The translations under genes were made by a program, and so were the position numbers. From Polytrichum commune (lineage: Eukaryota > Streptophyta > Polytrichopsida > Polytrichales > Polytrichaceae), in the NCBI GenBank assembly GCA_950295325.1, contig OX485809.1:12522001-12586000 (forward strand): a DNA stretch of 64,000 bases. Direction: 5' to 3'. This document shows, piece by piece, positions 6,105-42,653 of the stretch; position 1 is the first letter of the stretch; the number at the start of each line of letters is the position of its first letter. Under the pieces are notes generated by a model. That model did not search any database. It saw only the letters and a program-made list of their open reading frames with translations, and was not told where the DNA came from.

Positions 6105-6153
6105 GATGGTCCTCCGGAGAACCCTTGTAGTGCCGGGTTTTGTCTTTTGAGTG
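6105..6153 (-). pseudogene. fragment of MULE-A gene P: start of a methyltransferase exon
   Basis: After a splice acceptor (GTGCAG at 6159-6154, minus strand), 16 codons read HSKDKTRHYKGSPEDH. The same exon of MULE-B starts HSSDKRRAHKGSSGNH at 17895. E1 cuts the exon at 6104. Exons carrying the ParB-like domain, which should lie between this and 8482, are missing, so MULE-A's gene P has an internal deletion that kept the tandem array. Confidence 0.7.
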
Positions 6154-15431: not shown

Positions 15432-15481
15432 GGGAAAAGCTATTTTGCGAGCGGTAAGTTTTCTAGAATATTGAAATTTTG
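15432..15481 (+). repeat. left terminal inverted repeat of MULE-B
   Basis: Shares 19 identical bases with the right end (AAGCTATTTTGCGAGCGGT at 15437-15455), then an imperfect match. It mimics an exon end with a GTAAGT donor, but the flanking duplication and the match to 42594-42643 identify it as a transposon end. Confidence 0.9.
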
Positions 15482-16456: not shown

Positions 16457-19400
16457 TCACTCCTCCTCATCACACTGAACAGCTTCTAGATCTAGAAAAC
16501 TCAAGCCTCTACGAGACAGAGAACGGGAGCGCGAAGTGGGATTCCGTATGCCCTCACTTGCAAAACAAAAAGCGATTTCTTCGGCATATGTAGGCAACTC
16601 AAAGGGTTTAGGAGGGCTTGGGAAAAATGTCGGCCTACAAAAAAAAGGTCGATGCTGTGGAAAAATCAGGATCTCGCACCTGCAAAACGAAAGGCTTCAA
16701 TAAAAAGTGACAACAAAAAGAAGTAACATAAATCAACATGATCTCAATAGAAATGCATACTTGACCGTTTAGACTTACTTACTGAATCGGGATTTCTTCA
16801 CGATCCGCTCAACTTCAATTTCCTCGCCATCAATGTCATCCACGATGGTGAGTGGATCCAGGTGAGGAGGCGAAAGAGTAGGTGAAGCCCGGATGAGGGG
16901 TGCCAGTAAGGCCTTGAAGATTTCCTCATCCGGCTCCAACGCAGCAATATGTCGGTTGATATTGCGACAAGCGTGTATGGACGACCCTAGAGAAGTGAAC
17001 ATGATTTAGGTGATAAGTGAATGTACAAATAAAATTGAGTTGAAACCTTGAGGAAAATAAACTGAGACTGAGTAGGGTTTAGGTTGAGAAACCGAACCAG
17101 TGGCTGCAGTGCAGTCAACCACGAGATCCCCAGGAAAGGTAGACGCTTCTATAAGCATCTGCATGAGCAAGACGGACTTCTCCCGAGGGCCTCACCAAGG
17201 TAAATTGCCATTCATGAGCTGATCATCTTTCGTGACCAGGTTCATGAGGATGTCATCTCTGGCAACGTCTACTCCGTGGTGGTCAAGAGCAGGGATTGGC
17301 TGAAAAGAAAATGTAGACTTGGGAACCCCTGGAAGACTCCTCACCGCCAAACAGATGCCAAATCTCATGGTCTGGCATTCGAACAAGAAGATTAGACAAG
17401 ATTGACAATGTCCATGGAGAATCAAATAATGTGTGAAGATCCAAACTGGTCATGCCGGACAAGAACAAAGGGCAAAGATTACAATCGAAAATAATAACAA
17501 ATATATGACAAACGAAAACATATGCATTTCAAGATCAAATCACTTACAGTGGATGTCGGATGTACTGCTGATGTCAAATGCAGACGGTTCATCCCCCACC
17601 ACTCCTTGCGGATTTCAAAACCGTATGACTTGCAGTATCCGAGTATGTTTGACTTTGTGCTCAATCGAAACGGATGAAGGATGATGAATGCACCATCATC
17701 CTAGAGGTGTTGGTCGGCAAAATCAAAAATGGGCTCCAGCCATTCCTTAGAATCCTGGTTCCATAAGGGCACATATGAAATAGGGTTCGAAATACCTGGA
17801 ACTGGGAGACCTTCTGGTTGGTCCACAAGGATCAAATCCACACAAGGGTGGTTTCCAGAAGATCCTTTGTGCGCACGCCTTTTATCAGATGAATGCTGCT
17901 CAATGAGCAATTCAATGCATGTAAGAAACGTAACAATTTCAAAAGCAAACAGAATTGGACAACTAAATACTAGCAGTTGCAAAAGAGAACCACATCAGAT
18001 GGGCAAATAAAAACAAAAATACCTTAGACATAAAAGCTTTGAGGTCATCATAGAGGGGTGACAAACTGCCCGATTCACCGCCAAGGACCTCAAACAATGA
18101 AGAGTTTAGAATGAACTCATCATTCATGCAATTGGTGTCCTCTATGAGATCAACAATCGGCAACTGGGAAAGGAGCTCATATGAGGTGTCCCTCTTAGTA
18201 CCCCTAGCTGAAACTGAGCGAATCTGGGAACCAGAGTCCACGGTTGGACTAGGCTGCACATGACTTATCATTTCTACCTCTCCAGGAGTAGTCACCTTCT
18301 TCTTGCCTTTCTTCATCGATTTTGCAGTTGCTTTCTGTTGCCTCTCCAACTCCTTTAGGTGAGCCTTTTCTTCTGCCTCCTTGACCTTGAGGGTTTTTTT
18401 GCGGTCCTCTTCAATCCGCCTCTTGAGTGCCTTAGCCCTGTCGTTGTCATCCTGGATGCCCTTCAAGTCCTCCATCTCCTCTCCAGACTCTCCAATAGCC
18501 TCGCGTGATTTCCTCAATTCCATCTCAAAAGGTGGGGTGTAATGTGTAGCACAATCGAGATACCACACACCAGAAGTAAGGTGCGAAGTCGTCCATGTCC
18601 TCTGCTGGGCAGCTGTGAACATGCATGAAGTGTTGGACCGGTCCAACCAAGTACTCAAGAAAACCAGCAAGTCCTCTTTCAGAATCGCTTTCTTTGGGAG
18701 GAGCTCATACTTGAAGAACCTGGAAAATAATGATGGCCATAAGAACATGAAAAAGTTGGAATTGATAAAGAGGGAAATAGAAGTATCAAATCAAAGCATG
18801 AAAGGAAAACAGAGCAAACACCTGAATAGGATTCTTCTCACAACAAGGTCCGTTCCCTTGTATCCCTGGAAATCATCAATTTTCTTAAAGCAGTCGTGAC
18901 CGCGAAACACCGAGACAAATGCATGGTCCCAAAGCGTGATCCTGCATTCCTCAATATATGCAGCCAAAGTTAGAGGCTCCAAACACACAGACATGTCGAT
19001 GGGGATGCGATCCTGTTGAACTATGTCTTCAAACATGTTTGTCGCATGATCGGAAATCTGAATGAAAACAAATTACACAATATCAACGAGTTGATAAATG
19101 AGTTGGATTAAAATTACCAAATGAAATGAAAAATTAGTAATGAAAAACAAGGAAAGGAATTAATGGTCAAGGACGAGGTCAAATTGATTATGCAATAGAG
19201 GACGTATCGGCCCCGATACAAGCAAAGCAAAGACAGATTATTCAACTTGGAAAAAAAAAAAATGGATTTGCACGTATCGGCCCCGATACACACACTGCGG
19301 CGGCGGAATGTTAAGGAGCACTCAGCTGAGTCCGGTTAGTTCCAGAATGTCACGATACCTTCTCAAGGGTTATGTGTTGAGGTTGCAATTAGTGTTTAGG

Positions 19401-21146
19401 TTCAAGAGGGCACCAACTAGGCCTATCATAATCCAAAGCAACCATTGGAGGTCAAGCTTTGGGCAAAGGTGTTTGCTTAATTTTCCAAGTTCTCAAACTT
19501 CTACTGATATGATCCACACAACAAATTTATGTAGTATTTCAAAATTAACACATGAGTTAGAATGCAGCAAGAACATTGTAAACTTTGTTGGAAAACACTG
19601 AAGTGTCAAGATATTCATACCCCAGCCCACCAGCATGCCTTTGCTAGGAAAATTGAAAGCTTTTCTTCGGTAACGGGCTTCGCAGGAACTCTTCTTGCCT
19701 CTCGAGTTGCGGCAGAGGCGTTTATGTATTGAAGCCACTTGATTTTGGAAATCGGGGATGCTCTTGAGTCTTGACGTAGTAATTAGCTGAAGCTTTTCTA
19801 AGTTGAGCTCTGGAGATATTGAATTATTGGCATAATGCCGCTCAATCTAGACAATTGCCAACGTCCTCATTAAAAATGGACAAAGTAGATATCTTGAAAT
19901 CAAATTTAGAATGACTAACATGATAAATCACTGGATTCAAGGAATGCAAACAACCTCATCAAACCAACCATCAGTGAGGTCTGGATTTGCAACTGCGACC
20001 AGTTTTCCCATCTTCTGGCACAATGCAATACATCGTTTCTCCACTGCGGACTTCATCGCGGCCGCTTTTTGAGGAGATACAACCCTATCAGACTGCTCAA
20101 TAAGCAAGCGGACACCTTCGTCAGCAGCCATGCTTATTTCATGCTGCCAATTATCAACAAGTTAGTTCATGCTGCAAACAATACACAGGCATGTTACAAA
20201 AAATCCTTAAACAAAGGAATTCAGTAACGTCAACGAACTATACATTCAATCAAAATGACTGAAGCTTAGTAATGACTTGAAATGACTTGAAATGAAAAGG
20301 AACAAGTGCACAAACCTGAAAGATGAAGGAGGTGAAAACATTCAATGGTAAGGTGTATCATGTTTTCTTTTGACCACGCTTACAACGCATGAAGTCAGTT
20401 GCTGACAACATGTCCTTCAGTTTCTCAAGATCCATTTGTCCATATTTTCTAACTCTAAATAGCGCGTGGACGGTGTTCGTTTTGGCATGGGAGTCCTCGG
20501 TGTGCCTGAAACACAACAATACATATATGAAAATGTATCGAATACAGGTACATGTTCAAAGACAATAAAAACGCTGAAAATCACACTTACTTGTTTATGT
20601 TGTGCATCACTTGCATAACCAAGCCGATTTTGTCCTTCGTGTTGAGGACAATGGAGTCCACTCTAAAATGCCAGGAAGAATCATTCTTATGAAGGCGGTC
20701 AATATGGTTGAGCCATGCTTGGCGTCTGTGATTACCATCACAGACAAAAAACATTAGATTCTCCATATGAGAAAGTTCAGGTACCGATAAGAGATACCTG
20801 TTGAATTCCTCATTCTGCGCATTCCAGATGGATCCTCACTTCTCCTTCACCGCAGATGTAACCTCATGAGTATTTCCATGTTCATCACTCAATGTAACGT
20901 AGAACACTACAGCCCCGTCGCGATAGCCATGAACAAACTCTTGTTCAAGCTTATCGAGGTCACTCTGGAGGGTAGGTCTCACCAAAGGCATGGCAACCAA
21001 CCTGCAAAGTGGAATCGAGACGCGTGAAACAGAGATTGGCTGGAATCTGAGGCTGGAAATGGTGGCAACGAAGTTTATTTTATGCCTGCTTCGAATCTCG
21101 TCCTCGTCATCTCCAAAATGCTCGTCGTCGTTTTGGGACTTATCCT
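16457..21146 (-). pseudogene. gene P of MULE-B, main part: ParB-like and DNA-methyltransferase-like protein
   Basis: Ten exon segments in transcription order: 21146-20591, 20505-20384, 20143-19955, 19846-19621, 19057-18822, 18719-18023, 17895-17548, about 17440-17098, 16986-16783, 16634-16457 (stop 16459-16457). The first encodes a ParB/sulfiredoxin-like domain: SRVSIPLCRLVAMPLVRP, then LEQEFVHGYRDG, then FFVCDGNHRRQAW. The 697-bp exon is a Lys/Glu-rich coiled-coil candidate. The last exons resemble a permuted N6/N4 DNA methyltransferase: VDLILVDQPEGLP (the DPPY position, degenerate here), EWWGMNR, then GDLVVDCTAATG with RHIAALEPDEEIF (AdoMet site). Damage: in-frame stops at 20836, 17701 and 17193; RT2 at 21146. 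The splice joints after 20384, 19621 and 17548 do not keep frame cleanly. Family calls rest on motif reading only. Confidence 0.7.
19204..19290. repeat. two identical near-palindromes in an intron of gene P
   Basis: CGTATCGGCCCCGATACA occurs at 19204-19221 and 19274-19291, 70 bases apart, with perfect 7-base arms GTATCGG/CCGATAC around CC. The core TCGGCCCCGA is the one in the 169-bp array and differs by one base from that in the 304-bp array. Confidence 0.85.
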
Positions 21147-21974
21147 TGTCGCGCACCTCTCCATGAGGAGTGGCCGAAACACCATGGGCACAAAGGGGAC
21201 CCCGGAGTGACACCCGGGACTTGTGGCGCCGTTGGTGAGACGGCCCAAGTGATCCTAGTGTGGGTGAGGTCCCCGGGCGTTGGGAACGCCTCCCATCCAC
21301 AAAGACTAGGAGGCACAAGGGTAAGGCCATGAGCTATGCGTAGCTCATGGCGTGGTGATTCTAGAATGCTCAAGAACACCTCAATCCGAGGTGTGAGCTA
21401 GGAGTTATGGCCATTTGAGTGGGGCGTTGTCCCGGGACAGCGCCCTGCTACAGCAGTGCCTGGGAGTGATTCCCGGGACTGCCAAGGTTCAAACAGGCAT
21501 AACTTCCTCACCACTTGCCCGAATGGGGCAAGTGAGGAGTCCATCGGCATCTACGTGAAGCGTAGATGAAGATGGACTGGTTGGTTGCTGGAATCAGACA
21601 TCATACAAGGAAGTTATGATGGTCTGAAGCTGCTGGGGGCTTCTAGGCCCAGCGGCTAAGGGAAAATGTCCACTTGGCCCCAACTCTTGGTAGAGAGACA
21701 AGAGGTTGGTTGACGGTGGGGTAGGGGCCCCGCGTAGAGTCCTAGAGGCTTATATGGGTGAGGTGGTGTGGCCTCACCCACCCGAGGCCGAACGGCAAGG
21801 CCTCCATGGGCTTTGGCCTATTGTGAGGCCATAGTTGCCTAGTATGGTTCGGGTTGTTGTAGTGTTGCTCCGGCAACGCGATGATCAACATAGGATTGGA
21901 CTTCCATGGATGGAAGTCCACATTGGGGAAATGGGTTACCGATTAAGGGGTGAGTCCCGAAAGCAAAGTAGGAG
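21147..21974 (+). repeat. 5' LTR of RT2, first part
   Basis: The first 828 bases of the LTR, up to '...aaagtaggag', where RT1 is inserted. The last 145 bases follow at 28748-28892 after the duplication AGGAG. Confidence 0.93.
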
Positions 21975-22960
21975 TGTCGCAACCCTTGCTAGCCCCCCTT
22001 GACAATCTTGCCAATTTTCAATTCTAGCAAAGGTTACGAGTGCTAACCATTCGCATTCCGCCATGCTAATGATTAGCTCCTCCTACCCCGGACCTTATAG
22101 TTCATAGGAGGGAACCAACCCTCCTACTTTGCTTTCGGGACTCACCCCTTAATTGGTAACCCATTCCTAGATGTGGACTTCCATCCATGGAAGTCCAATC
22201 CCATGTTGATCATCGCGTTGCCGGAGCAACACTACAACAACCCGAACCATACTAGGCAACTATGGCCTCACAATGGGCCAATGCCCATGGAGGCCTTGCC
22301 GTTCGGCCTCGGGTGGGTGAGGCCACACCACCTCACCCATATAAGCCTCTAGGACTTCATGCGGGGCCCCTACCCCACCGTCAACCAACCTCTTGTCTCT
22401 CTACCAAGAGTTGGGGCCAAGTGGACATTTTCCCTTAGCTGCTGGGCCTAGAACCCCCCAGCAGCTTCAGACCATCATAACTTCCTTGTATGATGTCTGA
22501 TGCTAACACTTGACCACTCCATCTTCATCTACGCTTCACGTAGATGCCGATGCACTCCTCACTTGCCCCATTCGGGCAAATGGTGAGGAAGTTATGCCTG
22601 TTTGAACCTTGGCAGTCCCGGGAATCACTCCCAGGCACTGCTGTACCAGGGCGCTGTCCCGGGACAGCGCCCCACTCAAATGGCCATAACTCCTAGCTCA
22701 CACCTCCGATTGAGGTGTTCTTGAGCTTTCTAGAATCACCGCGCCATGAGCTACGCATAACTCATGGCCTTACCCTTGTGCCTCCTAGTCTTCGTGGGTG
22801 GGAGGCGTCCCCAACGCCCGGGGCCCTCACCCACACTAGGATCACTTGGGCCCTCTCACCAACGGCGCCACAAGTCCCGGGTGTCACTCCGGGGTCCCCC
22901 TTGTGCCCATGGTGTTTCGGCCACTCCTCATGGAGAGGTGCGCGACACTCACCCCCACCA

Positions 22961-24002
22961 AACGGAGTCGATGCCCTCATCGACTATACTCGTAGTCGGC
23001 ACACCAATTCTCAAGTTGCCATCCTCTATGGTGCGGCATTGTGTTTACCTTAGGGCGCGACCCCCACAATGCATCTTCAAATTTGGCATAGTCCCAAAGG
23101 TGTTGTTCCTAGGTGGTCCGTTAGCGACCTTGGATCTCTCATCCAAGGACCTAACCTACACTAGACCCACCTACTTTGGGACTCACTTGGGTTGCCCCTC
23201 CTTTGGGGCCTCCCCCGTTAGGCTCCACTAGCCTAACATGACACATCTAGGCGAGACCTCAACGCTTCCACTAAGTTGTCTCGGTTGCAACTCCGAGATG
23301 GCTTTCCATTGTTAAGCCACGCCTCGATCGCACGGGGGTGATGCCAAGTCCCGCCCGACTCGGTTCCCACTTTGCTCTTTCGAGACATGGGTTCATGACT
23401 CCCATGCGCCAACTCTCGTTAGCTCGCGGGTAGCACTTTTATGAGCACGCGCCATCACATTGTCCCCGCCCGGACAAGCCCACAACTAAGAAGTATCTTG
23501 GTTTTATCCAAGGCCCCTCCAAGCTATGGCCCCCAATTACTCGGCTTACCCAACCTAGTTTGGCATGTCTATTCCCCCTCTTCCATTAACCAAGCACAAG
23601 TACAAGACTAGGACCTCATCTCATACTTTTCTCTTTGCACCACTAAAGTTTGGACTTTATTCCCTCAAGCCAAAGAACAAGTGCATGTTGTGGAGCAATT
23701 AACCTCGAAACTATGTTTGCTACTAGAGTCTCTCCCCCACTAAAGGAGATTGATGTCCTCATCAATGCCTACGCTTCTTTTTATTGGAATGTCTAGCCTT
23801 AGTTTCTTCAAAGTGCTTCACCAATTCATTGGTGTTGACCATGTCTCTTGCCGGCACACAAGCGGTTTCTTTCTCAAGGTATCCTCACCATTTCACCAAG
23901 TATTTCTTTGTACTTTTTCTTTCCTTTTCACTTGGGCTTCCTACACTTGAGGATGCCCTCTTACCTCATGTTCCAAATGACCTCCACAAGGTCGGGAGGT
24001 GG
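22961..24002 (-). other. 3' untranslated region of RT1
   Basis: About 1 kb between the integrase end and the polypurine tract. It is conserved at 32915-33956, 44872-45900 and 52930-53980, with no convincing open frame. It includes the conserved phrases 'gtgctcataaaagtgctaccc' and 'gttaggctagtggagcctaac', an inverted repeat. Confidence 0.6.
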
Positions 24003-26960
24003 CCTAATCACTTGCTTGTGATCGGGCCACAAGGTGTCGTCCTAAAATGACTTTCGTAATGAGACATGAAATGTCGGATGCACTTTGATTTCCGGCGGTA
24101 ATTCCAACTTATATATGTCCTTGACCACTTGTTCCACAATGGGAAACGGAGCTCCAATTTTGGACATGAACTTTGGAGTGAGGCCTTCCGACTAAGTGAA
24201 GTTGTTCACATTCAACAACGCCTTTTGGCCCACCTCATTCTCCACTTCGCGTCTTCCGGCATTGACTTGCACTCCGTAGCACCTTCGGGCTTTCTCCACC
24301 AACAACTTGGTCATCTCCGAGACTTGTTCACGCTTCTTGGCCAAGTCCTCACCATCTTGGTTGAACTCTAGTGTTGAATGTGCCCCCTCGAGAGCTAGGT
24401 TAATAGGTTGGAGCGCATCCACTCCATAAGCCACCACCAAAGACCACCCCTTGGTAGCCAAGTGCGTGGCTACATTGCAATTACACTCCGCTCGACCCAC
24501 ATAGTCCGCCCAATCTCTTTGGTCCGCCCCCACCAAGTTCCTCAAGTATTGCTTCAAGACTCCATTCACACGCTCCGCTTTCCCATTCATTTGGGAATGC
24601 AAGGTCGTGCTAAACCTTAGTTTCATTCCGACCTCCTTAGAGAAATGCATTGAAAATGCACTTGTGAACTTTGGATCTTGATCCCACACAATCACTCTTG
24701 GCAACCCGTGGTGCCTCAACCATCCTTTGAGAAAAGGCTATGCGGTCTCCAACGCGGTGGCGGTTCCCACAATCGGCACCATGTGTGCCAACTTGGCAAA
24801 CCGCTCAACCATCAACAAGATGGCATCATACCCATGTGACTCCAGCAAACTTGTGATCAAGTCCATGCACATACTATGCCATGGCGCCGACGGGATAGGC
24901 AACGGTTGCAAGAAACCGCCTTGCTTTTGGTAAGAGGCTCGGTTCATTTGAACCTTGATTCAAGCCTTTACAAAGTGGGCTATATCTTCCTTTATGCACC
25001 GCCAATGGTACCTCCATGACACCATTCTATGGCGGTTTTTTTTTCTTTCTCCTCTATGGCCGGCAATAGGGCTATCACATTCTTCCTTCAAAACCGATAG
25101 CCTCAACTTGCCTTGTGGCACAAATACCCTACTTTGTTTGCACTTGAACAATCCGTCCACCAACTTAACTTCTTTGAGCACCTTGCTCTTGCGAAGCTCA
25201 CCTAAAAGCTTTTGTGCTTTGGGGTAATTAATTTACCCCTCCCGTATCTTGCATCACAAGTTTCCTTCGCCGGCACACATTAGCCACAAGGTTTGGATGG
25301 TTCTCATTGCTTGGAACTCTTCCGGTTTACTTCGCGCATCCGGCACCACATTTCCACGGTCCGGTTTGTGGATCAAATCCACCTTCATAAGCGCCAAACT
25401 ATCATGCCACCGCAATGACTTGGCGCTCACTTGCGCTTGAATGTCAAAATTCTTTTAGGACACATTGTCCATGTAGACCTTTGCTTTGTGCAACCCCAAA
25501 TAGTGTTGCCACATCTTCAAGAAATGCACTACGGCAAAGAAATTCTTTGTCATGAGTTGGTTGTCTTCTTTGACAACCATCGAGCTTCATGCTCCCATAT
25601 GCAATGGCCATCCATCTTACACATAATCCACCATTGGCAAAGTCGCTCACCCCCGTATGCACCTCAAAAGGTTTGTCAAGCTCCGCGAACTTGAGCACGG
25701 GCGTCTAAGAACACTTGCTCTCAAGCTGCCCAAAGACTTGGTGGCAAGGCTCATCCCACTCTTGGGATAGTCATTTCTTCCACAAGTCGGATAAGGTCGG
25801 ATAACCATCAAGCTTAACGCTCTCATATGCAATGGCCATCCATCCTACGTTAACCATCCGCCAATGGCAAAGTCACTCGCCCCCGTATGTACCTCAAAAG
25901 GTTTGTCAAATTTCGCAAACTTGAGCACGGGCGGCGAAGAGAACTTCGTCTTAAGCTCCTTAAAGACTTGGTAGCAAGGCTCAACCCACTTTTGGGATAG
26001 CCATTTCTTGCATAAGTTGGACAAGGTCGGACAACCATCGAGCTTCATGCTCTTATATACAATGGCCATCCATTTTGCCTCAACATCCGCCAATGCTAAA
26101 GTCACTCGCCCCCGTATGCACCTCAAAAGGTTTGTCAAAATCCGCGAACTTAAGCACGGGCGGCGAAGAGAACTTGTTTTTTTGAGCCCCCCCCAAAGGC
26201 TTGGTGACAAGGCTCATCCCACTCTTGGGATAGCCATTTTCCTCAATAAGTTGAATAAGGTCCTAGCAACCTTAGAAAACTCTCGAATGAAGTTGTGGTA
26301 CTAATTGGCTAGGCCAACAAATGACCTAAGCCCTTTTTGAATCAAGGGCCAATTCTCCTTTTGGATTGCCTTGACATTCTTCATGTTCGTCCACCAACTT
26401 CCTTTGTCACCACATACCTCAAGAACTCGATCTCTCGTTGAGCAAAGTTCTTTTTCACTCCTTGGCGGTAATTTTTTTTTTTTTTTTGCGCAACACATTA
26501 GTGAATACATCTTTGTATCTCACCAACATCGCACCAATGTTGTTTGGGGGAGGCCCATCTTTCCTAGCCTCCCCATACGTTCATTGGAGTTGCTCCAATT
26601 GAACCACGACCATTATGTTTTTTATTTTTTTTAATTCGGTCCATTAAGACCAAATTCAACTTAGGTCCTCCTACCATAGGAGTCATTGTTAATTTGAACT
26701 TCAATTCTTTGCCATTATGACACATCATAATGCACGGCAAGCACACCGGCTTGCACCTCACATCTATCATGTGAGTTTCAAAGAAGGCAGCCCTCACAAT
26801 GACATGCATTTTATCTATTTCACTTGGTGTGAAATTTTGACAAAAATCCAATGTCCCACGTTGAAAGGTTACATGCATCGCGGCCTCCTTTGTCTCATGC
26901 GGATCGCCCTTTCCAAACCGCACCTTGGTGGGCTTGCCCGCTCTACCAATCGGCAAGCCC
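24003..26960 (-). pseudogene. pol: pol remnants of RT1 (protease/RT edge, RNase H repeats, integrase)
   Basis: Read in transcription order. A protease/RT-leading segment lies at about 26956-26500 (VKYKDVFTNVLP-like in relatives). Then comes RSFVGLANYYHHFIRG-like sequence near 26330, from the RT thumb. Three repeats of the RT/RNase H joint (DKPFEVHTGASDFAIGG) follow at about 26230-25560, then an HHCC-type zinc region with SPIAGHRGERK near 25080. The integrase core (24947-24192) has CMDLI, WDQDPKFTS and SQMNGKAERVNGVL, which keep the three acidic residues. Stops and frame changes separate these parts. The RT palm with its YxDD motif is not found between the thumb and protease parts, so the element cannot have encoded a working polymerase. 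Confidence 0.75.
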
Positions 26961-27299
26961 CAACTCCCTTATCAGTTTTGGACTTAAGAAGAAGTGGTAG
27001 CCTCTTTATCAATACATGAGACATTTCTCCCATTCATTTGAGCCTCAAGGTACAAAAGACTTGGCCTCGGCTTAAGGCTACTAGCCTTGGCCACAATGCC
27101 ATCGTCTTACATTCGGTTCTCGGCACAAGTATTATTTGGCGGGGTACCTATCTCCCCTCAACGTCCATTGTTGTAACGCACCGCCAAATTGCTTAATGGG
27201 ATCATCGGCCTTGATGCTCATGGCAATTTTGATGATCCCCGCCACAACCTCAATAAACTTTTGGAAATTTGAACTTGGTATTCACCACCCGCTTTTGAA

Positions 27300-27770
27300 A
27301 CCCACCTAAAACGATGTATTTCTTAGAAAACTCGTTCATCTAAGATGTACAATTCATTTGGGTGTGAAATGCGTGCATATACGCCTTAAGAGGCCCGAAC
27401 ACCTCATTTCCACCAAATTCACTCCAACATCAATACCTTCCAAGCATTTGGAATTGGAATTTCAATCCAACAATAATGCCCTCCAAGGTTTTGGGTGCTT
27501 TCGGTATTCTAGGCCCCAAATGTTTTTTGAGGTTTGCGGGAGTCTTTTTCAAAGCACTCCTCCATTTTCCTTACCAAATCCACCCTCATGCCCACCATTG
27601 TCATTAGAACCAATGGTATGGTCAAATTCCACTTGCACATGATCCTTGTTCCAATTTGAGCCTCACAACCTTTTGGAAACCCCGGGCTCACCATCATAAC
27701 CCGCATTTTTGATACCTATGTTTCCCTCAAAGTGTGAGCTCAAAACTTGGAACCCTGCTCTGATACAAAG
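27300..27770 (-). pseudogene. 5' end of the RT1 internal region (gag-start remnant and primer site)
   Basis: Downstream of the primer site the minus strand reads a short conserved leader and a gag-like start that recurs in all four elements, such as RT2 at 28933-29232 and RT4 at 49143-49412. It has stops in each copy. No gag core or zinc knuckle can be recognised. Confidence 0.5.
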
Positions 27771-29478
27771 TGTCGCAACCCTTGCTAGCCCCCTTGACAA
27801 TCTTGCCAATTTTCAATTCTAGCAAAGGTTACGAGTGCTAACCATTCGCATTCCGCCATGCTAATGATTAGCTCCTCCTACCCCGGACCTTATAGTTCAT
27901 AGGAGGGAACCAACCCTCCTACTTTGCTTTCGGGACTCACCCCTTAATTGGTAACCCATTCCTAGATGTGGACTTCCATCCATGGAAGTCCAATCCCATG
28001 TTGATCATCGCGTTGCCGGAGCAACACTACAACAACCCGAACCATACTAGGCAACTATGGCCTCACAATGGGCCAATGCCCATGGAGGCCTTGCCGTTCG
28101 GCCTCGGGTGGGTGAGGCCACACCACCTCACCCATATAAGCCTCTAGGACTTCATGCGGGGCCCCTACCCCACCGTCAACCAACCTCTTGTCTCTCTACC
28201 AAGAGTTGGGGCCAAGTGGACATTTTCCCTTAGCTGCTGGGCCTAGAACCCCCCAGCAGCTTCAGACCATCATAACTTCCTTGTATGATGTCTGATGCTA
28301 ACACTTGACCACTCCATCTTCATCTACGCTTCACGTAGATGCCGATGCACTCCTCACTTGCCCCATTCGGGCAAATGGTGAGGAAGTTATGCCTGTTTGA
28401 ACCTTGGCAGTCCCGGGAATCACTCCCAGGCACTGCTGTACCAGGGCGCTGTCCCGGGACAGCGCCCCACTCAAATGGCCATAACTCCTAGCTCACACCT
28501 CCGATTGAGGTGTTCTTGAGCTTTCTAGAATCACCGCGCCATGAGCTACGCATAACTCATGGCCTTACCCTTGTGCCTCCTAGTCTTCGTGGGTGGGAGG
28601 CGTCCCCAACGCCCGGGGCCCTCACCCACACTAGGATCACTTGGGCCCTCTCACCAACGGCGCCACAAGTCCCGGGTGTCACTCCGGGGTCCCCCTTGTG
28701 CCCATGGTGTTTCGGCCACTCCTCATGGAGAGGTGCGCGACAAGGAGGGTTGGTTCCCTACTATGAACTATTGGTCCGGGGTAGGAGGAGCTAACCATTA
28801 GCATGGCGGAATGCAAATGGTTAGCGCTCGTAACCTTTGCTAGAATTGAAAATTGGCAAGATTGTCAAGGGGGGCTAGCAAGGGTTGCGACACTTGGTAT
28901 CAGAGCAGGGTTCCAATATTTGAGCTAGCACTTTGAGGGAGACATGGCTATCAAACCTGAGGGTTATTATGGTGAGCCCGGGGTTTCCAAAAGGTTGTGA
29001 CGCTCAAATTGGAACAAAGATCATGTGTAAATGGAATTTGACCATACCATTAGTTCTAATGACAATGGTGGGCATGAGGGTGGATTCGGTGAGGAAAATG
29101 GAGGTGTCCTTTGAAAGGGCTCCCGCACACCTCAAAAAGCATTTGGGGCCTAGAATACCGAATGCACCCAAAACCTTGGAGGGCATTAATGTTGGATTGA
29201 AATTCCAATTCCAAATGCTTGGAAGGTATTGATGTTGGAATGAAGTTGGTGGAAATGAGGCGTCCGGGCCTCTTAAGGCGTATATGCGCGCATTTCACAC
29301 CCGAATGAATAGTACATCTTTGATGAACGAGCTTTCTAAGAAATGCATCGTTTTAGGTGGGTTTCAAAAGTAGGTGGTGAATACCAAGTTCAAATTTCCA
29401 AAGTTTATTGAGGTTGTGGCGGGGATCATCAAAATTGCCATGAGCATCAAGGCCGATGACCCCATTAAGCAATTTGGC

Positions 29479-30452
29479 TGTCGCAACCCTTGCTAGCCCC
29501 CCTTGACAATCTTGCCAATTTTCAATTCTAGCAAAGGTTACGAGCGCTAACCATTCGCATTCCGCCATGCTAATGATTAGCTCCTCCTACCCCGGACCTT
29601 ATAGTTCATAGGAGGGAACCAACCCTCCTACTTTGCTTTCGGAACTCACCCCTTAATCGGTAACCCATTCCTACATGTGGACTTCCATCCATGGAAGTCC
29701 AATCCCATGTTGATCATCGCATTGCCGGAGCAACACTACAACAACCCGAACCATACTAGGCAACTATGGCCTCACAATGGGCCAATGCCCATGGAGGCCT
29801 TGCCGTTCGGCCTCGGGTGGGTGAGGCCACACCACCTCACCCATATAAGCCTCTAGGACTTTACGCGGGGCCCCTACCCCGCCGTCAACCAACCTCTTGT
29901 CTCTCTACCAAGAGTTGGGGCCAAGTGGACATTTTCCTTTAGCTGCTGGGCCTAGAACCCTCCCAGCAGCTTCAGACCATCATAACTTCCTTGTATGATG
30001 TCTGATCATAACAACCAACCCCTCCATCTTCATCTACGCTTCACGTAGATGCTGATGGACTCCTCACTTGCCCCATTCGGGCAAGTCTTGAGGAAGTTAT
30101 GCCTGTTTGAACCTTGGCAGTCCCGGGAATCACTCCCAGGCACTGCTGTACCAGGGCGCTGTCCCAGGACAGCGCCCCACTCAAATGGCCATAACTCCTA
30201 GCTCACACCTCCGCTTGAGGTGATCTTGAGCATTCTAGAATCACCACGCCATCAGCTACGCATAGCTCATGGCCTTACCCTTGTGCCTCCTAGTCTCCGT
30301 GGGTGGGAGGCGTTCGCAACGCCCGGGGCCCTCACCCACACTAGGATCACTAAGGCCCTCTCACCAACGGCGCCACAAGTCCCGGGTGTCACTCCGGGGT
30401 CCCCCTTGTGCCCATGGTGTTTCGGGCACTCCTCATGGAGAGGTGCGCGACA
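29479..30452 (-). mobile_element. solo LTR inside RT2
   Basis: A 974-bp minus-oriented LTR of the TGTCGC family with the 5-bp duplication TTGGC (29474-29478 and 30453-30457). The uninterrupted site can be read in RT1 near 27180-27200, confirming a clean insertion. Confidence 0.94.
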
Positions 30453-31397
30453 TTGGCGGTGCGTTACAACAATGGACGTTGAGGGGAGATAGGTTCCCCG
30501 CCAAATAATACTTGTGCCGCGAACCGAATGTAAGACGATGGCATTGTGGCCAAGGCTAGTAGCCTTAAGCCGAGGCCAAGTCTCTTGTACCTTGAGGCTC
30601 AAATGAATGGGAGAAATGTCTCACGTATTGATAAAAAGAGGCTACCACTTCTTCTTGAGCCCAAAATTCACAAGGGAGTTGGGGCTTGCCGATTGGTAGA
30701 GCGGGCAAGCCCACCAAGGTGCGGTTTGGAAAGGGCGATCCGCATGAGACAAAGGAGGCCGCGATGCATGTAACCTTTCAACGTGGGACATTGGATTTTT
30801 GTCAAAATTTCACACCAAGTGAAATAGATAAAATGCATGTCATTGTGAAGGCCGCCTTCTTTGAAACTCACATGATAGATGTGAGGTGCAAGCCGGTGTG
30901 CTTGCGGTGCATTATGATGTGTCATAATGGCAAAGAATTGAAGTTCAAATTAACAATGACTCCCTATGGTAGGAGGACCTAAGTTGAATTTGGTCTTAAT
31001 GGACCGAATGAAAAAAAAAGAAAACATAATGGTCGTGGTTCAATTGGAGCAACTCCAAGGAACGTATGGGGAGGCTAGGAAAGATGGGCCTCCCCCAAAC
31101 AACATTGGTGTGATGTTGGTGAAATACAAGGATGTATTCACCAATGTGTTGCCCAAAAAAAAAATTACCGCCAAGGAATGAAAAATCACTTTGCTCAACG
31201 AGAGATTGAGTTCTTGAGGTATGTGGTGACAAAGGAAGTTGGTGGACGAACATGAAGAATGTCAAGGCAATCCAAAAGGAGAATTGGCCCTTGATTCAAA
31301 AGGGCTTAGGTCATTTGTTGGCCTAGCCAATTAGTACCACAACTTCATTCGAGAGTTTTCTAAGGTTGCTAGGACCTTATTCAACTTATTGAGGAAA

Positions 31398-32290
31398 ATG
31401 GCTATCCCAAGAGTGGGATGAGCCTTGTCACCAAGCCTTTGGGGGGCTCAAAAACAAGTTCTCTTCGCCACCCGTGCTTAAGTTCGCGGACTTTGACAAA
31501 CCTTTTGAGGTGCATACGGGGGCGAATGACTTTAGCATTGGCGGATGTTGAGGCAAAATGGATGGCCATTGCATATAAGAGCATGAATCTCGATGGTTGT
31601 CCGACCTTGTCCAACTTATGCAAAAAATGGCTATCCCAAAAGTGGGATGAGCTTTGCCACCAAGTCTTTAAGGAGCTTAAGACCAAGTTTTCTTCGCCGC
31701 CCGTGCTCAAGTTTGCGAAATTTGACAAACCTTTTGAGGTGCATACGGGGGCGAGTAACTTTACCATTGGCGGATGTTGATCCAAGATGGATGCCCATTG
31801 CATATGGGAGCATTAAGCTTAAAGGTTGTCAAACCTTGTGCGACTTGTGAAAGAAATGGCTATCCCAAGAGTGGGATGAGCCTTGCCACCAAGTCTTTGA
31901 GAAGCTTAAGAGCAAGTTCTCTTCGCCGCCCGTGCTCAAGTTCGCGGAGTTTGACAAGCCTTTTGAGGTGCATACGGGGGCGAGTGACTTTACCATTGGC
32001 GGATGTTGAGGCAAGATGGATGGCCATGGCATATGAGAGCATGAAGCTCGATGGTTGTTCCACCTTGTGCGACTTGTGGAAGAAATGGCTATCCCAAGAG
32101 TGGGATGATGTTTGTACGAGTCTTTGGGGAGCTTAACACCAAGTTCTCTTCGCCGCCCGTGTTCAAGTTCGCGGAGCTTGACAAACCTTTCGAGGTGCAT
32201 ACGGGGGTGAGTGCCTTTGCCAATGGTGGATTATGTGTAAGATGGATGGCCATTGCATATGGGAGCATAAAGCTCGATGGTTGTCAAAGA
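31398..32290 (+). repeat. 229-bp tandem repeat of the RT/RNase H joint
   Basis: The landmark 'atggctatccca' recurs at 31398, 31626, 31856 and 32085, giving periods of 228-230 bp. Each unit encodes the segment from 'WDEPCHQVFKELKTKFSSPP' to 'FDKPFEVHTGAS'. RT1 has about three units, RT3 four (one split by RT4) and RT4 two. Confidence 0.88.
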
Positions 32291-33968
32291 AGACAACCAA
32301 CTCATGACAAAGAACTTCTTTGCCGTAGTGCATTGCTTGAAGATGTGGCGACATTATATGGGGTCGCACAAAGCAAAGGTCTACATGGACAATGTGTCCT
32401 AAAAGTATTTTGACATACAAGCGTAAGTGAACGCCAAGTCATTGCGGAGGCATCATAGTTTGGCGCTTATGAAGGTGGATTTGATCCACAAACCGGACCA
32501 TGGAAATGTGGTGCCAGATGCGCGAAGTAGACCGGAAGAGTTCCAAGCAATGAGAACCATCCAAACCTTGTAGCTAATGTGTGCCGGCAAAGGAAACTTG
32601 TGATGCAAGATACGGGAGGGGTAAATTAACTACCCCAAAGCACAAAAGCTTTTAGGTGAGCTTCGCAAGAGCAAGGTGCTCAAAGAGGTTAAGTTGGTGG
32701 ACGGATTGTTCAAGTGCAAACAAAGTCGGGTATATGTGCCACAAGGCAAGTTGAGGCTATCGGTTTTGAAGGAGGAATATTATAGTCCTATTGCCGGCCA
32801 TAGAGGAGAAAGAAAAAGCCGCCATAGAATGGTGTCAAAGAGGTACCATTGGCGGTGCATAAAGGAAGATATAACCCACTTTGTGAAGGCTTGAATCAAA
32901 GTGCCAAGTGATTAGGCCACCTCCCGACCTTGTGGACGTCATTTGGAACATGAGGTAAGAGGGCATCCTCAAGTGTAGGAAGCCCAAGTGAAAAGGAAAG
33001 AAAATGTACAAAGGAATACTTGGTGAAATGGTGAGGATACCATGAGAAAGAAACCGCTTGGGTGGCGGCAAGAGACATGGTCAACACCAATGAATTGATG
33101 AAGCACTTTGAAGAAACTAAGGCTAGACATTCCAATAAAAAGAAGCGTAGGCATTGATGAGGACATCAATCTCCTTTAGTGGGGGAGAGACTCTAGTAGC
33201 AAACATAGCTTCGAGGTTAATTGCTCCACAACATGCACTTGTTCTTTGGCTTGAGGGAATAAAGTCCAAACTTTAGTGGTGCAAAGAGAAAAGTATGAGA
33301 TGAGGTCCTAGTCTTGTACTTGTGCTTGGTTAATGGAAGAGGGGGAATAGACATGCCAAACTAGGTTGGGTAAGCCGAGTAATTGGGGCCATGGCTTGGA
33401 GGGGCCTTGGATAAAACCAAGAAACTTCTTAGTTGTGGGCTTGTCCGGGCGGGGACAAGGTGATGGCGCGTGCTCATAAAAGTGCTACCCGCGAGCTAAC
33501 GAGAGTTGGCGCATGGGAGTCATGAACCCATGTCTCGAAAGAGCAAAGTGGGAACCGAGTCGGGCGGGACTTGGCATCACCCCCGTGCGATCGAGGGGTG
33601 GCTTAACAATGGAAAGCCATCTCGGAGTTGCAACCGAGACAACTTAGTGGAAGCGTTGAGGTCTCGCCTAGATGTGTCACGTTAGGCTAGTGGAGCCTAA
33701 CGGGGGAGGCCCCAAACGAGGGGCAACCCAAGTGAGTCCCAAAGTAGGTGGGTCTAGTATAGGTTAGGTCCTTGGAGGAGTTCCAAGGTCGCTAACGGAA
33801 CACCCAGTAACGACACCTTTGGGACTATGCCAAATTTGAAGATGCATTGTGGGGGTCGCGCCCTAAGGTAAACACAATGCCGCACCATAGAGGATGGCAA
33901 CTTGAGAATTGGTGTGCCGACTACGAGTATAGTCGATGAGGGCATCGACTCCGTTTGGTGGGGGTGAG

Positions 33969-34953
33969 TGTCGCGCACCTCTCCATGAGGAGTGGCCGAA
34001 ACACCATGGGCACAAGGGGGACCCCGGAGTGACACCCGGGACTTGTGGCGCCGTTGGTGAGAGGGCCCAAGTGATCCTAGTGTGGGTGAGGGCCCCGGGC
34101 GTTGGGAACGCCTCCCACCCACGAAGATTAGGAGGCACAAGGGTAAGGCCATGAGTTATGCGTAGCTCATGGCGTGGTGATTCTAGAAAGCTCAAGAACA
34201 CCTCAATCGGAGGTGTGAGCTAGGAGTTATGGCCATTTGAGTGGGGCGCTGTCCCGGGACAGCGCCCTGGTACAGCAGTGCCTGGGAGTGATTCCCGGGA
34301 CTGCCAAGGTTCAAACAGGCATAACTTCCTCAAGACTTGCCCAAATGGGGCAAGTGAGGAGTCCATCGGCATCTACGTGAAGCGTAGATGAGGATGGAGT
34401 GGTTGGTTGTTATGATCAGACATCATACAAGGAAGTTATGATGGTCTGAAGCTGCTGGGGGGGTTCTAGGCCCAGCAGCTAAAGGAAAATGTCCACTTGG
34501 CCCCAACTCTGGGTAGAGAGACAAGAGGTTGGTTGACGGTGGGGTAGGGGCCCCGCGTGAAGTCCTAGAGGCTTATATGGGTGAGGTGGTGTGGCCTCAC
34601 CCACCCGAGGCCGAACGGCACGGCCTCCATGGGCATTGGCCCAATGTGAGGCCATAGTTGCCTAGTATGGTTCGGGTTGTTGTAGTGTTGCTCCGGCAAC
34701 GCGATGATCAACATAGGATTGGATTTCCATGGATGGAAGTCCACATCCAAGAAATGGGTTACCGATTAAGGGGTGAGTCCCGAAAGCAAAGTAGGAGGGT
34801 TGGTTCCCTCCTATGAACTATAAGGTCCGGGGTAGGAGGAGCTAACCATTGGCATGGCGGTATGCGAAGGGTTAGCCACTCGTAACCTTTGCTAGAATTG
34901 AAAATTGGCAAGATGGTCAAGGGGGGGGGGGGGGGCTAGCAAGGGTTGCGACA
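33969..34953 (+). repeat. 3' LTR of RT2
   Basis: A 985-bp LTR, longer than its relatives partly because of a run of 15 G at 34921-34935 where RT4 has 'gggacc'. It contains the family's hairpins. Confidence 0.93.
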
Positions 34954-34958
34954 ATCCT

Positions 34959-35122
34959 GGTCCTCTCCTCCATCGTTTTCCATATCTGTGTCCGCAATCT
35001 CAACAACAGAACGCTGAACAGGCGAATCGCGTGAACAAACTGCATCATGTTCAAGCTGGCCAAAGACTCAACAAATATCTTCAATGCGCCCAAACATTGC
35101 ATCAAATTTCAAGGATAAACTC
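34959..35122 (-). pseudogene. gene P of MULE-B, exon 3 first part
   Basis: Minus-strand reading AMFGRIEDIC, an in-frame TGA at 35068, then VFGQLEHDAVCSRDSP and an acidic stretch ending ...NDGGED. This joins across the RT2 insertion to QDKSQNDDEHFGDDEDE at 21146. Highly acidic linker ahead of the ParB-like domain. The exon start, about 35115-35122, lies at the edge of the 169-bp array, whose units repeat a similar 'tttagagag' acceptor. Confidence 0.65.
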
Positions 35123-36373
35123 TCTAAATGCTGGAAGTTTGATATATCAACCAAAATTGAAAATCGAAATCAATATGCATATGACCCCCCCCCCTAACCT
35201 TATGACCTTAATGCCCTTGAACCTGAATTGACTTGATTTCTAACTTCAAACTGAAATCCCTACAGACTATGCTCGGCCCCGAATGGACTCTCTAAAGGTT
35301 GCAAGTTTGATATATAAGCCAAAATTGAAAATCTAAAATCATTATGAATATAACCCCCCCCCTTAACCTTATGACCTTAATGCCCTTGAACCTGAATTGA
35401 GTTGAATTCTAACTTCAAACTGAAATCCCTAGATACTATGGTCGGCCCCGAATGGACTCTCTAAAGGCAACAAGTTTGATATATACGCCAAAATTGAAAA
35501 TCTAAAATCATTATGAATATGACCCCCCCCCCCTAACCTTATGACATTAATGCCCTTGAACCTGAATTGACTTGAATTCTAACTTCAAACTGAAATCCCT
35601 ACAGACTATGCTCGGCCCCGAATGGACTCTCTAAAGCTTGCAAGTTTGATATATAAGCCAAAATTGAAAATCTAAAAGCATTATGAATATGACCCCCCCC
35701 CCTAGCCTTATGACCTTAATGCCCTTGAACCTGAATTGACTTGAATTCTAACTTCAAATTGAAATCCCTAGATACTATGCTTGGCCCCGAATGGACTCTC
35801 TAAAGGCTGCAAGTTTGATATATACGCCAAAATTGAAAATCTAAAATCAATATGAATATCACCCCCCCCCCCTAGCCTTATGACCTTAATGCCCTTGAAC
35901 CTGAATTGACTTGAATTCTAACTTCAAACTAAAATCCCTACAGACTATGCTCGGCCCCGAATGGACTTTTTAAAGGCAAGAAGTTTGATATATCAGCCAA
36001 AATTGAAAATCGAAATCAATATGCATATGACCCCCCCCCCCTTACCTTATGACCTTAATGCCCTTGAACCTGAATTGACTTGAATTCTAACTTCAAACTC
36101 AAATCCCTAGATACTATGCTCGGCCCCGAATGGACTCTCTAAAGGCAAGAAGTTTGATATATAAGCCAAAATTGAAAATCTAAAATCATTATGAATATGA
36201 CCCACTAACCCTATGACCTTGAAACCCTTGAATCTGAATTGACTTGAATTCTACCTTCAAACTAAAATCCCTACAGACTAGGCTCGGCCCCGAATGGACC
36301 CTCTCAAGGCTGGAAGTTTGATATATCAGTCAAACTTGAAAATCGAAATCAATATGCATATGACCCCCCCCCC
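35105..36373. repeat. 169-bp tandem array with poly-C tracts (MULE-B, intron of gene P)
   Basis: Seven and a half units. The landmark end of 'cggcccc' recurs at 35280, 35449, 35619, 35788, 35958, 36127 and 36291, giving periods of 169-170 bp (last 164). Most units contain a run of 8 to 11 C after 'tatga', and all carry TCGGCCCCGA or a one-base variant. The array lies in the intron between exon 2 (36630) and exon 3 of gene P, the same intron that holds the unrelated 304-bp array in MULE-A. Confidence 0.92.
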
Positions 36374-36629
36374 CTAACACATTTGGGAGGCAACTCACCA
36401 TTTCCAATTGAGAGTGAACAGAATCCGCACACCCGGCCATTATCCCGCCCTCAACCTCCTCTGCGTCTCCAATCCGTGACTAAACAACTTCTATGGGAAG
36501 AAGATAGAAGAAGAGGAAGGTGCCCTGAATCCTCGTTTTCCTAGTCTCGGACCCTAAACCCTAAAAACCACATTCAAGAAAGATTGCAGATTATGGGTTT
36601 GGCTTTCGGTTTAGGGCTTCACATATTAC

Positions 36630-37361
36630 CTCTTCTCTGAATTGATTATTGCCATTGTCCATGCTGCCTTCGCAAAGATCAACAACATCGGCATCGCCGT
36701 CGAATTCTCCAAGGCTCTGTTAAGTATATTTTGCATTTCCTCATTAGCTATGAACTTACCCTTAGAAATTGCAAGCATTGAAAATTAACATTACGCTAAA
36801 CCCTTACAGTAGAAATCACCATTTTTACACAATATTCACAAACCTGCTGCTCACTGTGAACTGATGTTGAGGCACTCGAGGCTCCCCAAGGTTGAAGTTG
36901 TGTATGTGTCATTCCCTGTTCCTGATGCCCAATCCAATTCCTATTTACATTCCATCACCCAACATATAAAAAATAACATAATTGAAAGCTAATGGGTCTC
37001 GACTGTTCTAATTCTCCGTGAGAATGGTTCACATTTCGTTTTTAAAGAAAACAATATCATGAGGATTTTAGATATACAACACCTCACTGCCCCCTTTGTC
37101 ATCTGGGTTGTCTTCCTCCGTTACTGGAAATAAAACGATGGGAGCAACCTCCGCCTTTTCAAATGACTCAACATTTCGTTTTGAACGACTGTGAGTAGCC
37201 TTTGTTGAATTATCCCCTTTTCTTCCCATGGTTGACCTCAATTTGTACGGGGTCACTACCTTATCTCTAGTAGCGAACCTCTCCTTTCTCTCAATGCGCC
37301 TCTGTTTCTGAATAGTCTTCCTCTCTTCTCGATCTGCTCTCGCTCTCGACCGAGTGTTCAT
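36630..37361 (-). pseudogene. gene P of MULE-B, exons 1 and 2
   Basis: Exon 1 (37361-37083, 93 codons) starts MNTRSRARADREERKTIQ, a basic N-terminus, and ends at a GTGTTG donor. Exon 2 (36716-36630, 29 codons, acidic, ending NQFREE before a GTAATA donor) follows a TTAACAG acceptor. Both exons are whole-codon in phase, like the MULE-A pair, whose second exon is longer (86 codons). This is the 5' end of the gene that continues at 35122, 34959 and 21146. The intron between exons 2 and 3 includes a short plant telo-box-like run (accctaaaccctaaa, 36551-36565). Confidence 0.65.
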
Positions 37362-37732
37362 CTCTAACCATACTCAAGCATCTATGCGCCATCATTATGT
37401 TCCTATTATCTTGGATTTAGATAATTAACCTGCAGTTTCTTTATTTATTCCTCGTTTTATCCACACTGCATTAAAACACTACAAAAGGCGCCGCTATTGT
37501 CTATCTACCTAATCGGTGTCAGCTATATTGTTGTGATTAAGGGATGACTACTATTGTAGTACATCCTATTCATACATGACACAGGTTGTCTAGAATTTAC
37601 ATAAATAACTATTGACTATTAATTGATCTATCAGGTTATCATATATTAGGGCATTGTTGTCCACCCTAGGTGTATATAATATCTGATTACTTGTACCCAT
37701 TCCTTCATCTCATCTCATGATATTCTTCTCCA
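37362..37732. promoter_or_regulatory. divergent promoter of MULE-B
   Basis: A 371-bp gap between oppositely transcribed start codons, well conserved with 9114-9485. TATATAA at 37673-37679 faces right. Confidence 0.6.
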
Positions 37733-38161
37733 ATGGGTACTGACTCAAGTCTCCCGAGCCTTGCTCCTTTACGTGCTCCTAGTTCATCACAAATCCACAC
37801 CACGTCGTCTTTCCCCGGTTTTGCAGACGTCGACAACATGAAGAGTCTAAACCCACCTGATTGCTCAGTTACTCCGGCGGTCGCAGTTCAGAGTCCACAT
37901 CCCCAGATTCCATCTTTGCAGACGGATGTTGCAACGTTGATAGAGAACAAGTCTACTTTACAGACTCATGCCTATTCTAGAGTAGGAGTTATTAAACCGG
38001 GCACTTACTCTAGATCTCTATTAGGGAGTGCCCCACGTCCCCAAGGTCAGGGACTCGGATGTGCAGGATGCACTGCAGTTCATAGTTTAGGGATTGACCA
38101 TTGTCATAAACATGAGTGTGACAAAAATGGCAAAGGGCCCCATAAGCGTATTCGTCGTTAA
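37733..38161 (+). CDS. 142-residue Cys/His protein of the MULE (copy B)
   Basis: Same length, start and stop as 9486-9914, with the C-terminal GCAGCTAVHSLGIDHCHKH fully conserved and changes concentrated in the Ser/Pro-rich N-terminal half (residues 20-70). The basic tail reads GPHKRIRR. That spread of changes suggests the C-terminal Cys/His part is the constrained portion. The stop is followed, 387 bases on, by the transposase start. Function unknown. Confidence 0.68.
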   Translation: MGTDSSLPSLAPLRAPSSSQIHTTSSFPGFADVDNMKSLNPPDCSVTPAVAVQSPHPQIPSLQTDVATLIENKSTLQTHAYSRVGVIKPGTYSRSLLGSAPRPQGQGLGCAGCTAVHSLGIDHCHKHECDKNGKGPHKRIRR

Positions 38162-42593: not shown

Positions 42594-42643
42594 TCAAAAT
42601 ATCTCGGAAGTTACCGCTCACCGCTCGCAAAATAGCTTCGTCC
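42594..42643 (-). repeat. right terminal inverted repeat of MULE-B
   Basis: The minus strand begins GGACGAAGCTATTTTGCGAG. Compared with the left end it has an extra 'ggtgagc' after position 24. The region 42194-42593 is the AT-rich 3' flank of the transposase, with nothing else visible. Confidence 0.9.
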
Positions 42644-42653
42644 TCCATGCGTC

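What the first reader, a model, noticed from the sequence alone, without database searches (positions are those of the whole stretch)
16457..37361. ParB-like plus DNA-methyltransferase-like gene carried by a plant Mutator-like transposon
Seen: gene P lies within MULE-B's inverted repeats, shares a divergent promoter with the transposase, and its first exons (and one methyltransferase exon fragment at 6105-6153) recur in MULE-A, so it belongs to the element. Motifs: FFVCDGNHRRQAW and SRVSIPLCRLVAMPLVRP (ParB/sulfiredoxin-like); VDLILVDQPEGLP before GDLVVDCTAATG (permuted N6/N4 methyltransferase order). Known: ParB-type domains fused to such methylases occur in phages and prophages. Inference: the MULE acquired a phage-like base-modification gene that may mark or protect element DNA, counter silencing or assist partition. 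I know of no description of this cargo in Mutator elements.
Basis: partly seen in the sequence, partly recalled or inferred. Interest (0 to 1): 0.95.

Follow-up and report, generated by a model that had tools for sequence, protein, structure and literature searches.

The report
Transposon gene fusing ParB and methyltransferase folds
A large and abundant jumping-gene family in this genome carries, beside its transposase, a second gene that joins a bacterial-type ParB DNA-partition fold to a DNA-methyltransferase fold with an altered active-site motif, a helper gene of which I found no earlier description.

Summary
Gene P lies inside a 27.2-kb element (15432-42644) with matching ends and a 9-bp target duplication; the joined flanks give an open frame, so the element sits in another element's transposase. 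P and the transposase T are divergent here and elsewhere: 68 of 150 scored ParB exons have a T upstream and divergent within 30 kb, against about 1 by chance. P is no recent capture: it is under purifying selection, and P genes about 30% identical keep the arrangement at five places. A predicted structure supports the ParB fold; the first 14 structure matches are ParB, Noc, KorB or PadC, though sequence profiles do not reach significance. The methyltransferase part matches DNA methylases. The prediction that intact copies restore DPPY fails: motif IV is D-x-P-E/D in nearly all copies read or score-typed; the AdoMet glycine is lost in several lineages. Best reading: an ancient partner of the transposase, a ParB-like DNA binder with a probably non-catalytic methyltransferase domain, perhaps acting on the element's own tandem arrays as VANC does. 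That mechanism is inference. Mutator membership is likely, not proven.

The parts
15423..15431 (.). left 9-bp target-site duplication (CCATGCGTC)
15432..15458 (+). left terminal inverted repeat of MULE-B (P side)
   Evidence: 21 of 22 core bases match the right end; the same terminus follows P in 7 of 10 fetched copies (A2, A3, A4, B1, B2, C1, F1) with different flanks; A1, D1 and E1 gave no match to the 22-base probe within 4 mismatches
16457..16678 (-). gene P exon 10 with stop
16778..16984 (-). gene P exon 9 (end of methyltransferase domain)
17096..17371 (-). gene P exon 8 (motif X and AdoMet motif I, here VDCTAATG); one in-frame stop
   Evidence: PF01555 match, profile 163-218, E=1e-6; DpnA match with the A3 copy
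17548..17895 (-). gene P exon 7 (motif IV, here VDQPEGLP); one in-frame stop
18023..18721 (-). gene P exon 6 (linker, charged region)
18824..19057 (-). gene P exon 5
19621..19846 (-). gene P exon 4; carries a frameshift in this copy
19955..20146 (-). gene P exon 3
20319..20504 (-). gene P exon 2 (after the ParB exon); one in-frame stop
20590..21150 (-). gene P exon 1, ParB-fold domain (DGNHR motif); one in-frame stop; upstream part cut off by the nested insertion
   Evidence: (model made from copy A3)
21151..34953 (.). nested insertion (retroelement-like and repeat sequence) splitting exon 1
   Evidence: homology to uninterrupted copy B1 stops and resumes here
34954..35134 (-). separated upstream part of exon 1 and adjoining sequence
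35119..36378 (.). tandem array, 169-bp unit, 7.5 copies, between first exon and ParB exon
   Evidence: array of the same period in copy B1
37098..37361 (-). promoter-proximal exon of P (basic N-terminal peptide; splicing to exon 1 inferred)
37721..38161 (+). transposase exon T0, divergent to P
38762..40672 (+). transposase exon T1 (putative catalytic region)
   Evidence: no Pfam match
40697..42193 (+). transposase exon T2 with C-terminal CxC/CxH (SWIM-like) pattern
   Evidence: no Pfam match for T2 itself
42617..42644 (-). right terminal inverted repeat of MULE-B (T side)
42645..42653 (.). right 9-bp target-site duplication
8850..9110 (-). promoter-proximal P exon of MULE-A (the element into which MULE-B inserted)
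   Evidence: 85% identical
9474..15431 (+). MULE-A transposase exons up to the insertion point
42645..43019 (+). MULE-A transposase C-terminus (SWIM-like) after the insertion
   Evidence: continuous frame in joined flanks; SWIM E=0.13, below cut-off

Best explanation
Gene P is an ancient second gene of a very large Mutator-like DNA transposon family and the usual partner of its transposase. It encodes about 1,060 residues: a ParB-fold domain, a long linker, and a permuted (beta-class) amino-methyltransferase domain. SHOWN BY COMPUTATION: membership of the element, divergent pairing with T in several lineages, purifying selection, the ParB fold (predicted structure), the methyltransferase homology, and the altered motifs. 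INFERRED: the protein no longer methylates bases by the normal DPPY chemistry. It uses both bacterial-type domains to bind DNA, probably at the subfamily-specific tandem arrays in its own introns. Bound there, perhaps spreading as ParB does, it keeps the element accessible to its transposase or counters host silencing, working like VANC in VANDAL elements but built from other domains.
Confidence: 0.45

Rival explanations
1. P is an active DNA amino-methyltransferase with an unusual D-x-P-E/D motif IV that marks element DNA with 6mA or 4mC to protect it or set its chromatin.
For: PF01555 homology; the AdoMet glycine is kept in 13 of 15 L059-type rows and 7 of 11 deep-lineage rows typed; strong selection on methyltransferase exons.
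Against: The stacking aromatic of motif IV is replaced by an acid in nearly all copies read or typed. In the main family the motif I glycine is gone in 32 of 32 distinct copies read.
Confidence: 0.15
2. P is a transposition co-factor, as mudrB has been proposed to be in maize MuDR: it assembles or bridges the element ends for excision or integration and has no role in silencing.
For: Divergent pairing with T. mudrB is described as apparently required for integration (PMC6446971, passage). ParB-type proteins bind and bridge DNA (recalled).
Against: The arrays found lie between first exon and ParB exon or in introns rather than at the ends. 20 of 21 T places of one young subfamily have no P detected within 45 kb.
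Confidence: 0.25
3. The ParB domain is a nicking nuclease, as reported for the Bacillus cereus ParB-methylase Bce_0392, used to process element DNA.
For: ParB/Srx fold; PMC5512222 passage on Bce_0392 and related enzymes.
Against: Nuclease residues were not tested. The closest folds are partition-type ParBs, several solved with CTP analogues or CDP.
Confidence: 0.1
4. P is a passively captured gene fragment, as in Pack-MULEs.
For: Mutator elements often carry captured genes (PMC6446971, passage); many P copies carry stops.
Against: dN/dS 0.07-0.20 between subfamilies, co-diversification with T, and open exons in several lineages.
Confidence: 0.03

Closest known systems
VANDAL elements with VANC anti-silencing proteins (Arabidopsis)
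   Same: A Mutator-type element with a further conserved gene; tandem repeats that differ between related elements, in introns and upstream regions (PMC5735166, passages).
   Different: No comparison of VANC and P sequences was made; P has ParB and methyltransferase folds; anti-silencing by P is not shown.
Bacterial and phage ParB-methylase fusions (e.g. Bce_0392, and the 501-aa protein on contig C12)
   Same: ParB domain fused to a DNA amino-methylase domain (PMC5512222, passage).
   Different: P is intron-rich and transposon-borne, with a long linker; motif IV is DxP[E/D], not DPPY; no significant full-length match among the 7,990 candidates scored from 5.8 billion proteins.
MuDR mudrB and other second genes of Mutator elements
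   Same: Second gene beside the transposase (PMC6446971, passages).
   Different: The part of the group table shown lists other accessory domains; 'methyltransferase' occurs 0 times in that review's main text.
Virus-borne Mariner elements with methyltransferase genes (Mariner-2_PGv, Mariner-1_OLpv)
   Same: A transposon that carries a methyltransferase gene (PMC3627910, passages).
   Different: Different superfamily, methylase types and host; no ParB mentioned in the passages I saw.

Membership tests
Mutator-like (MULE) transposons | 8-11 bp target-site duplication | tested here: met
   9 bp at exact ends, shown for one element only; range from PMC6446971 passage
Mutator-like (MULE) transposons | terminal inverted repeats | tested here: met
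   short, 21 of 22 core bases
Mutator-like (MULE) transposons | MULE transposase domain | tested here: inconclusive
   no Pfam match for T exons at E<=1 or E<=10; the genome search with PF10551 did not complete; no fold of T obtained
Mutator-like (MULE) transposons | SWIM zinc finger in the transposase (common, not universal) | tested here: inconclusive
   CxC/CxH pattern present; SWIM E=0.13 in MULE-A, below cut-off; none in MULE-B's T2
ParB/sulfiredoxin superfamily | ParB fold | tested here: met
ParB/sulfiredoxin superfamily | significant sequence match to a ParB profile | tested here: not met
   no PF02195; phrog_1033 (ParB-like) weakly in 27 of 56 members, best E 0.091, 0.051; hhalign negative
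ParB/sulfiredoxin superfamily | CTP binding and switching | not testable with these tools
   needs protein; D, G, N, H of the motif are invariant in the 56-sequence alignment
N6/N4 amino-methyltransferases (PF01555) | profile match above cut-off | tested here: met
   29.3 bits against 26.7 over profile 163-218 only; L058 35.3 over 163-216, L059 32.4 over 1-216
N6/N4 amino-methyltransferases (PF01555) | catalytic motif IV (D/N/S)PP(Y/F/W) | tested here: not met
   DxP[E/D] in nearly all copies read or typed; the consensus is recalled
N6/N4 amino-methyltransferases (PF01555) | AdoMet motif I FxGxG | tested here: inconclusive
   kept in L058, first Gly kept in most L059-type rows, replaced in the main family and others
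VANC anti-silencing proteins | sequence-specific hypomethylation of own element | not testable with these tools
   needs methylation data

The most novel reading that the evidence does not exclude
A eukaryotic transposon family has domesticated a bacterial ParB-methylase as a chromatin tool: a ParB domain that loads and perhaps spreads on parS-like tandem arrays within the element, joined to a methyltransferase fold turned into a DNA reader, giving each subfamily its own self-recognition and anti-silencing system. This would be a ParB-type spreading clamp at work in a eukaryotic nucleus.
Probability: 0.2. Interest if true: 0.95.

Novelty: new variant of a known kind. Interest (0 to 1): 0.83.

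Why it matters
How DNA transposons defend themselves against silencing is known for few systems. This one offers a family with over a thousand first-look candidate places for each gene, open and near-identical copies, clear subfamilies and candidate target arrays, so co-evolution of protein and target can be tested directly. It would also show a bacterial partition-type fold and an altered DNA methylase fixed as the usual partner of a eukaryotic transposase.

Tried and rejected
Recent capture or passive cargo: rejected by selection and co-diversification. Restored DPPY in intact copies: rejected. ParB by sequence: Pfam, NCBIfam, PDB and hhalign gave no significant match. A full-length protein search found nothing among 7,990 candidates. 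A first structure model from 9 sequences was useless, pLDDT 37.5; the 56-sequence model replaced it. A left end of MULE-A was not found. A distant P copy beside B2 was too decayed to read its methyltransferase. Literature: searches gave no description of a ParB-methyltransferase gene in a Mutator element; of their hits I saw passages of PMC5512222, PMC3627910, PMC9033089, PMC3671162 and PMC12045711, none on this, and did not open the other listed papers. One search (DUF1015 and ParB) was fruitless. The library is open-access PMC only.
Full report
What was checked. The window is part of contig C7 of an unnamed 408-Mb assembly in 64 contigs. I read gene P exon by exon and compared its exons with ten copies fetched from the same genome.

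The element. Gene P lies inside one insertion. The left end starts at 15432 and the right end is at 42644; the ends share a 22-base core with 21 identities, and 9-bp duplications flank them. Joining the flanks gives a continuous transposase frame through the site, and locus L018 carries that frame uninterrupted. So MULE-B is nested in the transposase gene of MULE-A. The P-side terminus recurs after the end of P in seven of the ten copies (A2, A3, A4, B1, B2, C1, F1), each time with different flanking DNA; A1, D1 and E1 gave no match to the 22-base probe within 4 mismatches. The duplication was checked for this one element only.

Pairing with the transposase. The promoter-proximal exon of P and the start of T face away from each other in the window element, in MULE-A, and in copies A1, A2, A4 and B1; B2 has a partial first exon and T1; in A3, C1, D1 and E1 they were not found in the stretch fetched, and F1 has diverged and mixed T pieces. 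Genome-wide I had the best 150 places each for the ParB exon (of 1,223 first-look candidates), methyltransferase exon 7 (of 1,064) and the T core (of 1,774). Of the 150 ParB exons, 68 have a T upstream and divergent within 30 kb; the three other arrangements give 2, 3 and 5; T places put at random give a mean of 0.99 and at most 5 in 200 runs. Of the 75 best T places (about 88% identity or more), 50 have a divergent ParB exon within 30 kb. These are lower bounds, since most candidates were not scored. Against the pairing: of T rows 76-94 (74-78% identical, one partial row at 90%) only 1 of 19 is linked, and of rows 95-150 only 17 of 56. In those last rows there are 21 places of 72% identity, nine of them with the same score; 20 of the 21 show no P from my lists within 45 kb, and one (C3:48386311) has a 43%-identical ParB exon 12.6 kb away in the divergent arrangement. 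Their P may be absent or too diverged for my lists.

Age and selection. Between subfamilies dN/dS is 0.07-0.20 over ParB exons, linker and methyltransferase exons where dS could be estimated; for A against B, dS is saturated while dN is about 0.27. Within young groups values scatter from 0.07 to 2.75 on few changes, mostly 0.3-0.8, as expected of copies that decay after insertion. A search with the L059-type methyltransferase found further deep lineages (142 rows, 137 of 1,129 candidates scored). One, about 30% identical, with single exons of up to 472 open codons, lies 9.6-13.4 kb from T in the same divergent arrangement at five places; of 14 pairs of such places and T within 45 kb, 10 are upstream and divergent. 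P and T have therefore diversified together for a long time.

Methyltransferase domain. PF01555 matches the joined exons at E=1e-6 over its last quarter, and an L059 exon over its whole length at E=1.1e-7. Exons 7-9 of copy A3 match DpnA at E=2e-6 and phage methylases at 23-25% identity in the 12 of 300 records listed. The order, motif IV before motif I, is the permuted one. Motif IV reads D-x-P-E in 33 of 34 distinct main-family copies and D-x-P-K in one; of two copies of a deep lineage, L058 has Asp and L059 Tyr (I removed six duplicate loci by hand). To type copies I could not fetch, I repeated the search with one residue changed and compared scores. Controls: Glu gives +3.0 to +3.1 bits, Asp +2.1, Tyr -4.3, Phe -3.0, Trp -2.5. 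Of 20 rows of the roughly 25-45%-identical lineages that cover motif IV in both searches, 19 shift by +2.9 to +3.1 (Glu) and one (C2:1364846) by +0.1. Of 16 such rows of the L059 type, 11 shift by +2.0 to +2.5 (Asp, perhaps Glu in one), L059 itself by -4.3, and four rows of decayed copies by -0.9 to +0.8. So an acid in place of the aromatic is general, and L059's Tyr is private. At the first glycine of motif I, 0 of 32 distinct main-family copies have Gly. Typed in the same way, 13 of 15 L059-type rows keep Gly (-2.7 to -2.8) and two decayed ones shift by -0.5; the abundant 153-codon lineage behaves as Ser (about +0.3 to +0.5 in the rows I compared by eye); of 11 deep-lineage rows 7 look like Gly, 3 like Ser and 1 like Ala, while six rows did not come back. 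The altered motif IV is thus shared by the lineages typed, while the AdoMet motif decayed in some. I read this as a domain kept for something other than ordinary methylation, without excluding an unusual activity.

Arrays. Elements carry long tandem arrays between the first exon and the ParB exon: a 295-bp unit in A1, 169 bp in B1 and in the window; related repeats recur in later introns of A1. A short core, CTGANNTGAGG, occurs 24, 25, 37 and 43 times in the four A copies, 29 times in D1 and 37 times in E1, never in the matched exons; A and E arrays have different flanks around that core. B1, C1 and the window element have none, B2 one, F1 two. VANC proteins of Arabidopsis bind short motifs that accumulate as tandem repeats in introns and upstream regions of their own elements (PMC5735166, passages). 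That parallel is the basis of my mechanism, and it remains an inference.

What is known. In the passages I saw of a review of Mutator elements across eukaryotes (PMC6446971), second genes are common, but 'methyltransferase' does not occur in the main text. Methyltransferase genes in transposons have been reported for virus-borne Mariner elements (PMC3627910, passages). ParB-methylase fusions are known from bacteria (PMC5512222, passages). Eight literature searches on this point turned up no description of this combination; the library holds open-access papers only, and not every listed paper was opened.

Verdict. The element did not just pick up a working phage methylase: it carries an old, selected, divergent ParB-methyltransferase protein as the usual partner of its transposase. 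Novelty is high, function is open, and membership of Mutator is likely but rests on ends, duplication and a weak zinc-finger match.

Noticed in passing
L039:7752-8092, L054:1568-1890, window 42645-43019: Three elements (A3, B2 and the window's MULE-B) are each inserted in, or directly beside, an exon of a distant relative of P or T, which may reflect abundance or a preference for related elements.
   Followed up: partly
G000:C10, C12, C23 (L001-L003, L055-L057): Small contigs that look bacterial or phage-derived; C12 encodes a 501-aa ParB-methylase fusion with an intact DPPYG. Probably contamination or associated microbes.
   Followed up: partly
G000:C3:13620523, C3:12064191, C3:58494821: Three T copies of a 76-78%-identical subfamily lie in open frames of 2,390-2,527 codons, far longer than other T copies; unexplained.
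   Followed up: no
L050-L051 (copy E1): Mosaic P gene: methyltransferase exons close to subfamily A (dS about 0.06) but ParB and linker exons far diverged, suggesting recombination between subfamilies.
   Followed up: partly
G000, 21 places of 72% identity: Young T copies, nine with the same score; 20 of 21 without any detected P within 45 kb. Their partner, if any, is unknown.
   Followed up: partly
P0005-P0124: 441 relatives of the ParB region occur in short contigs of public assemblies (sources ena, jgi, lgn, ncbi), so the family is widely sampled; in P0115 exons 1 and 2 are contiguous, spliced or intronless.
   Followed up: partly
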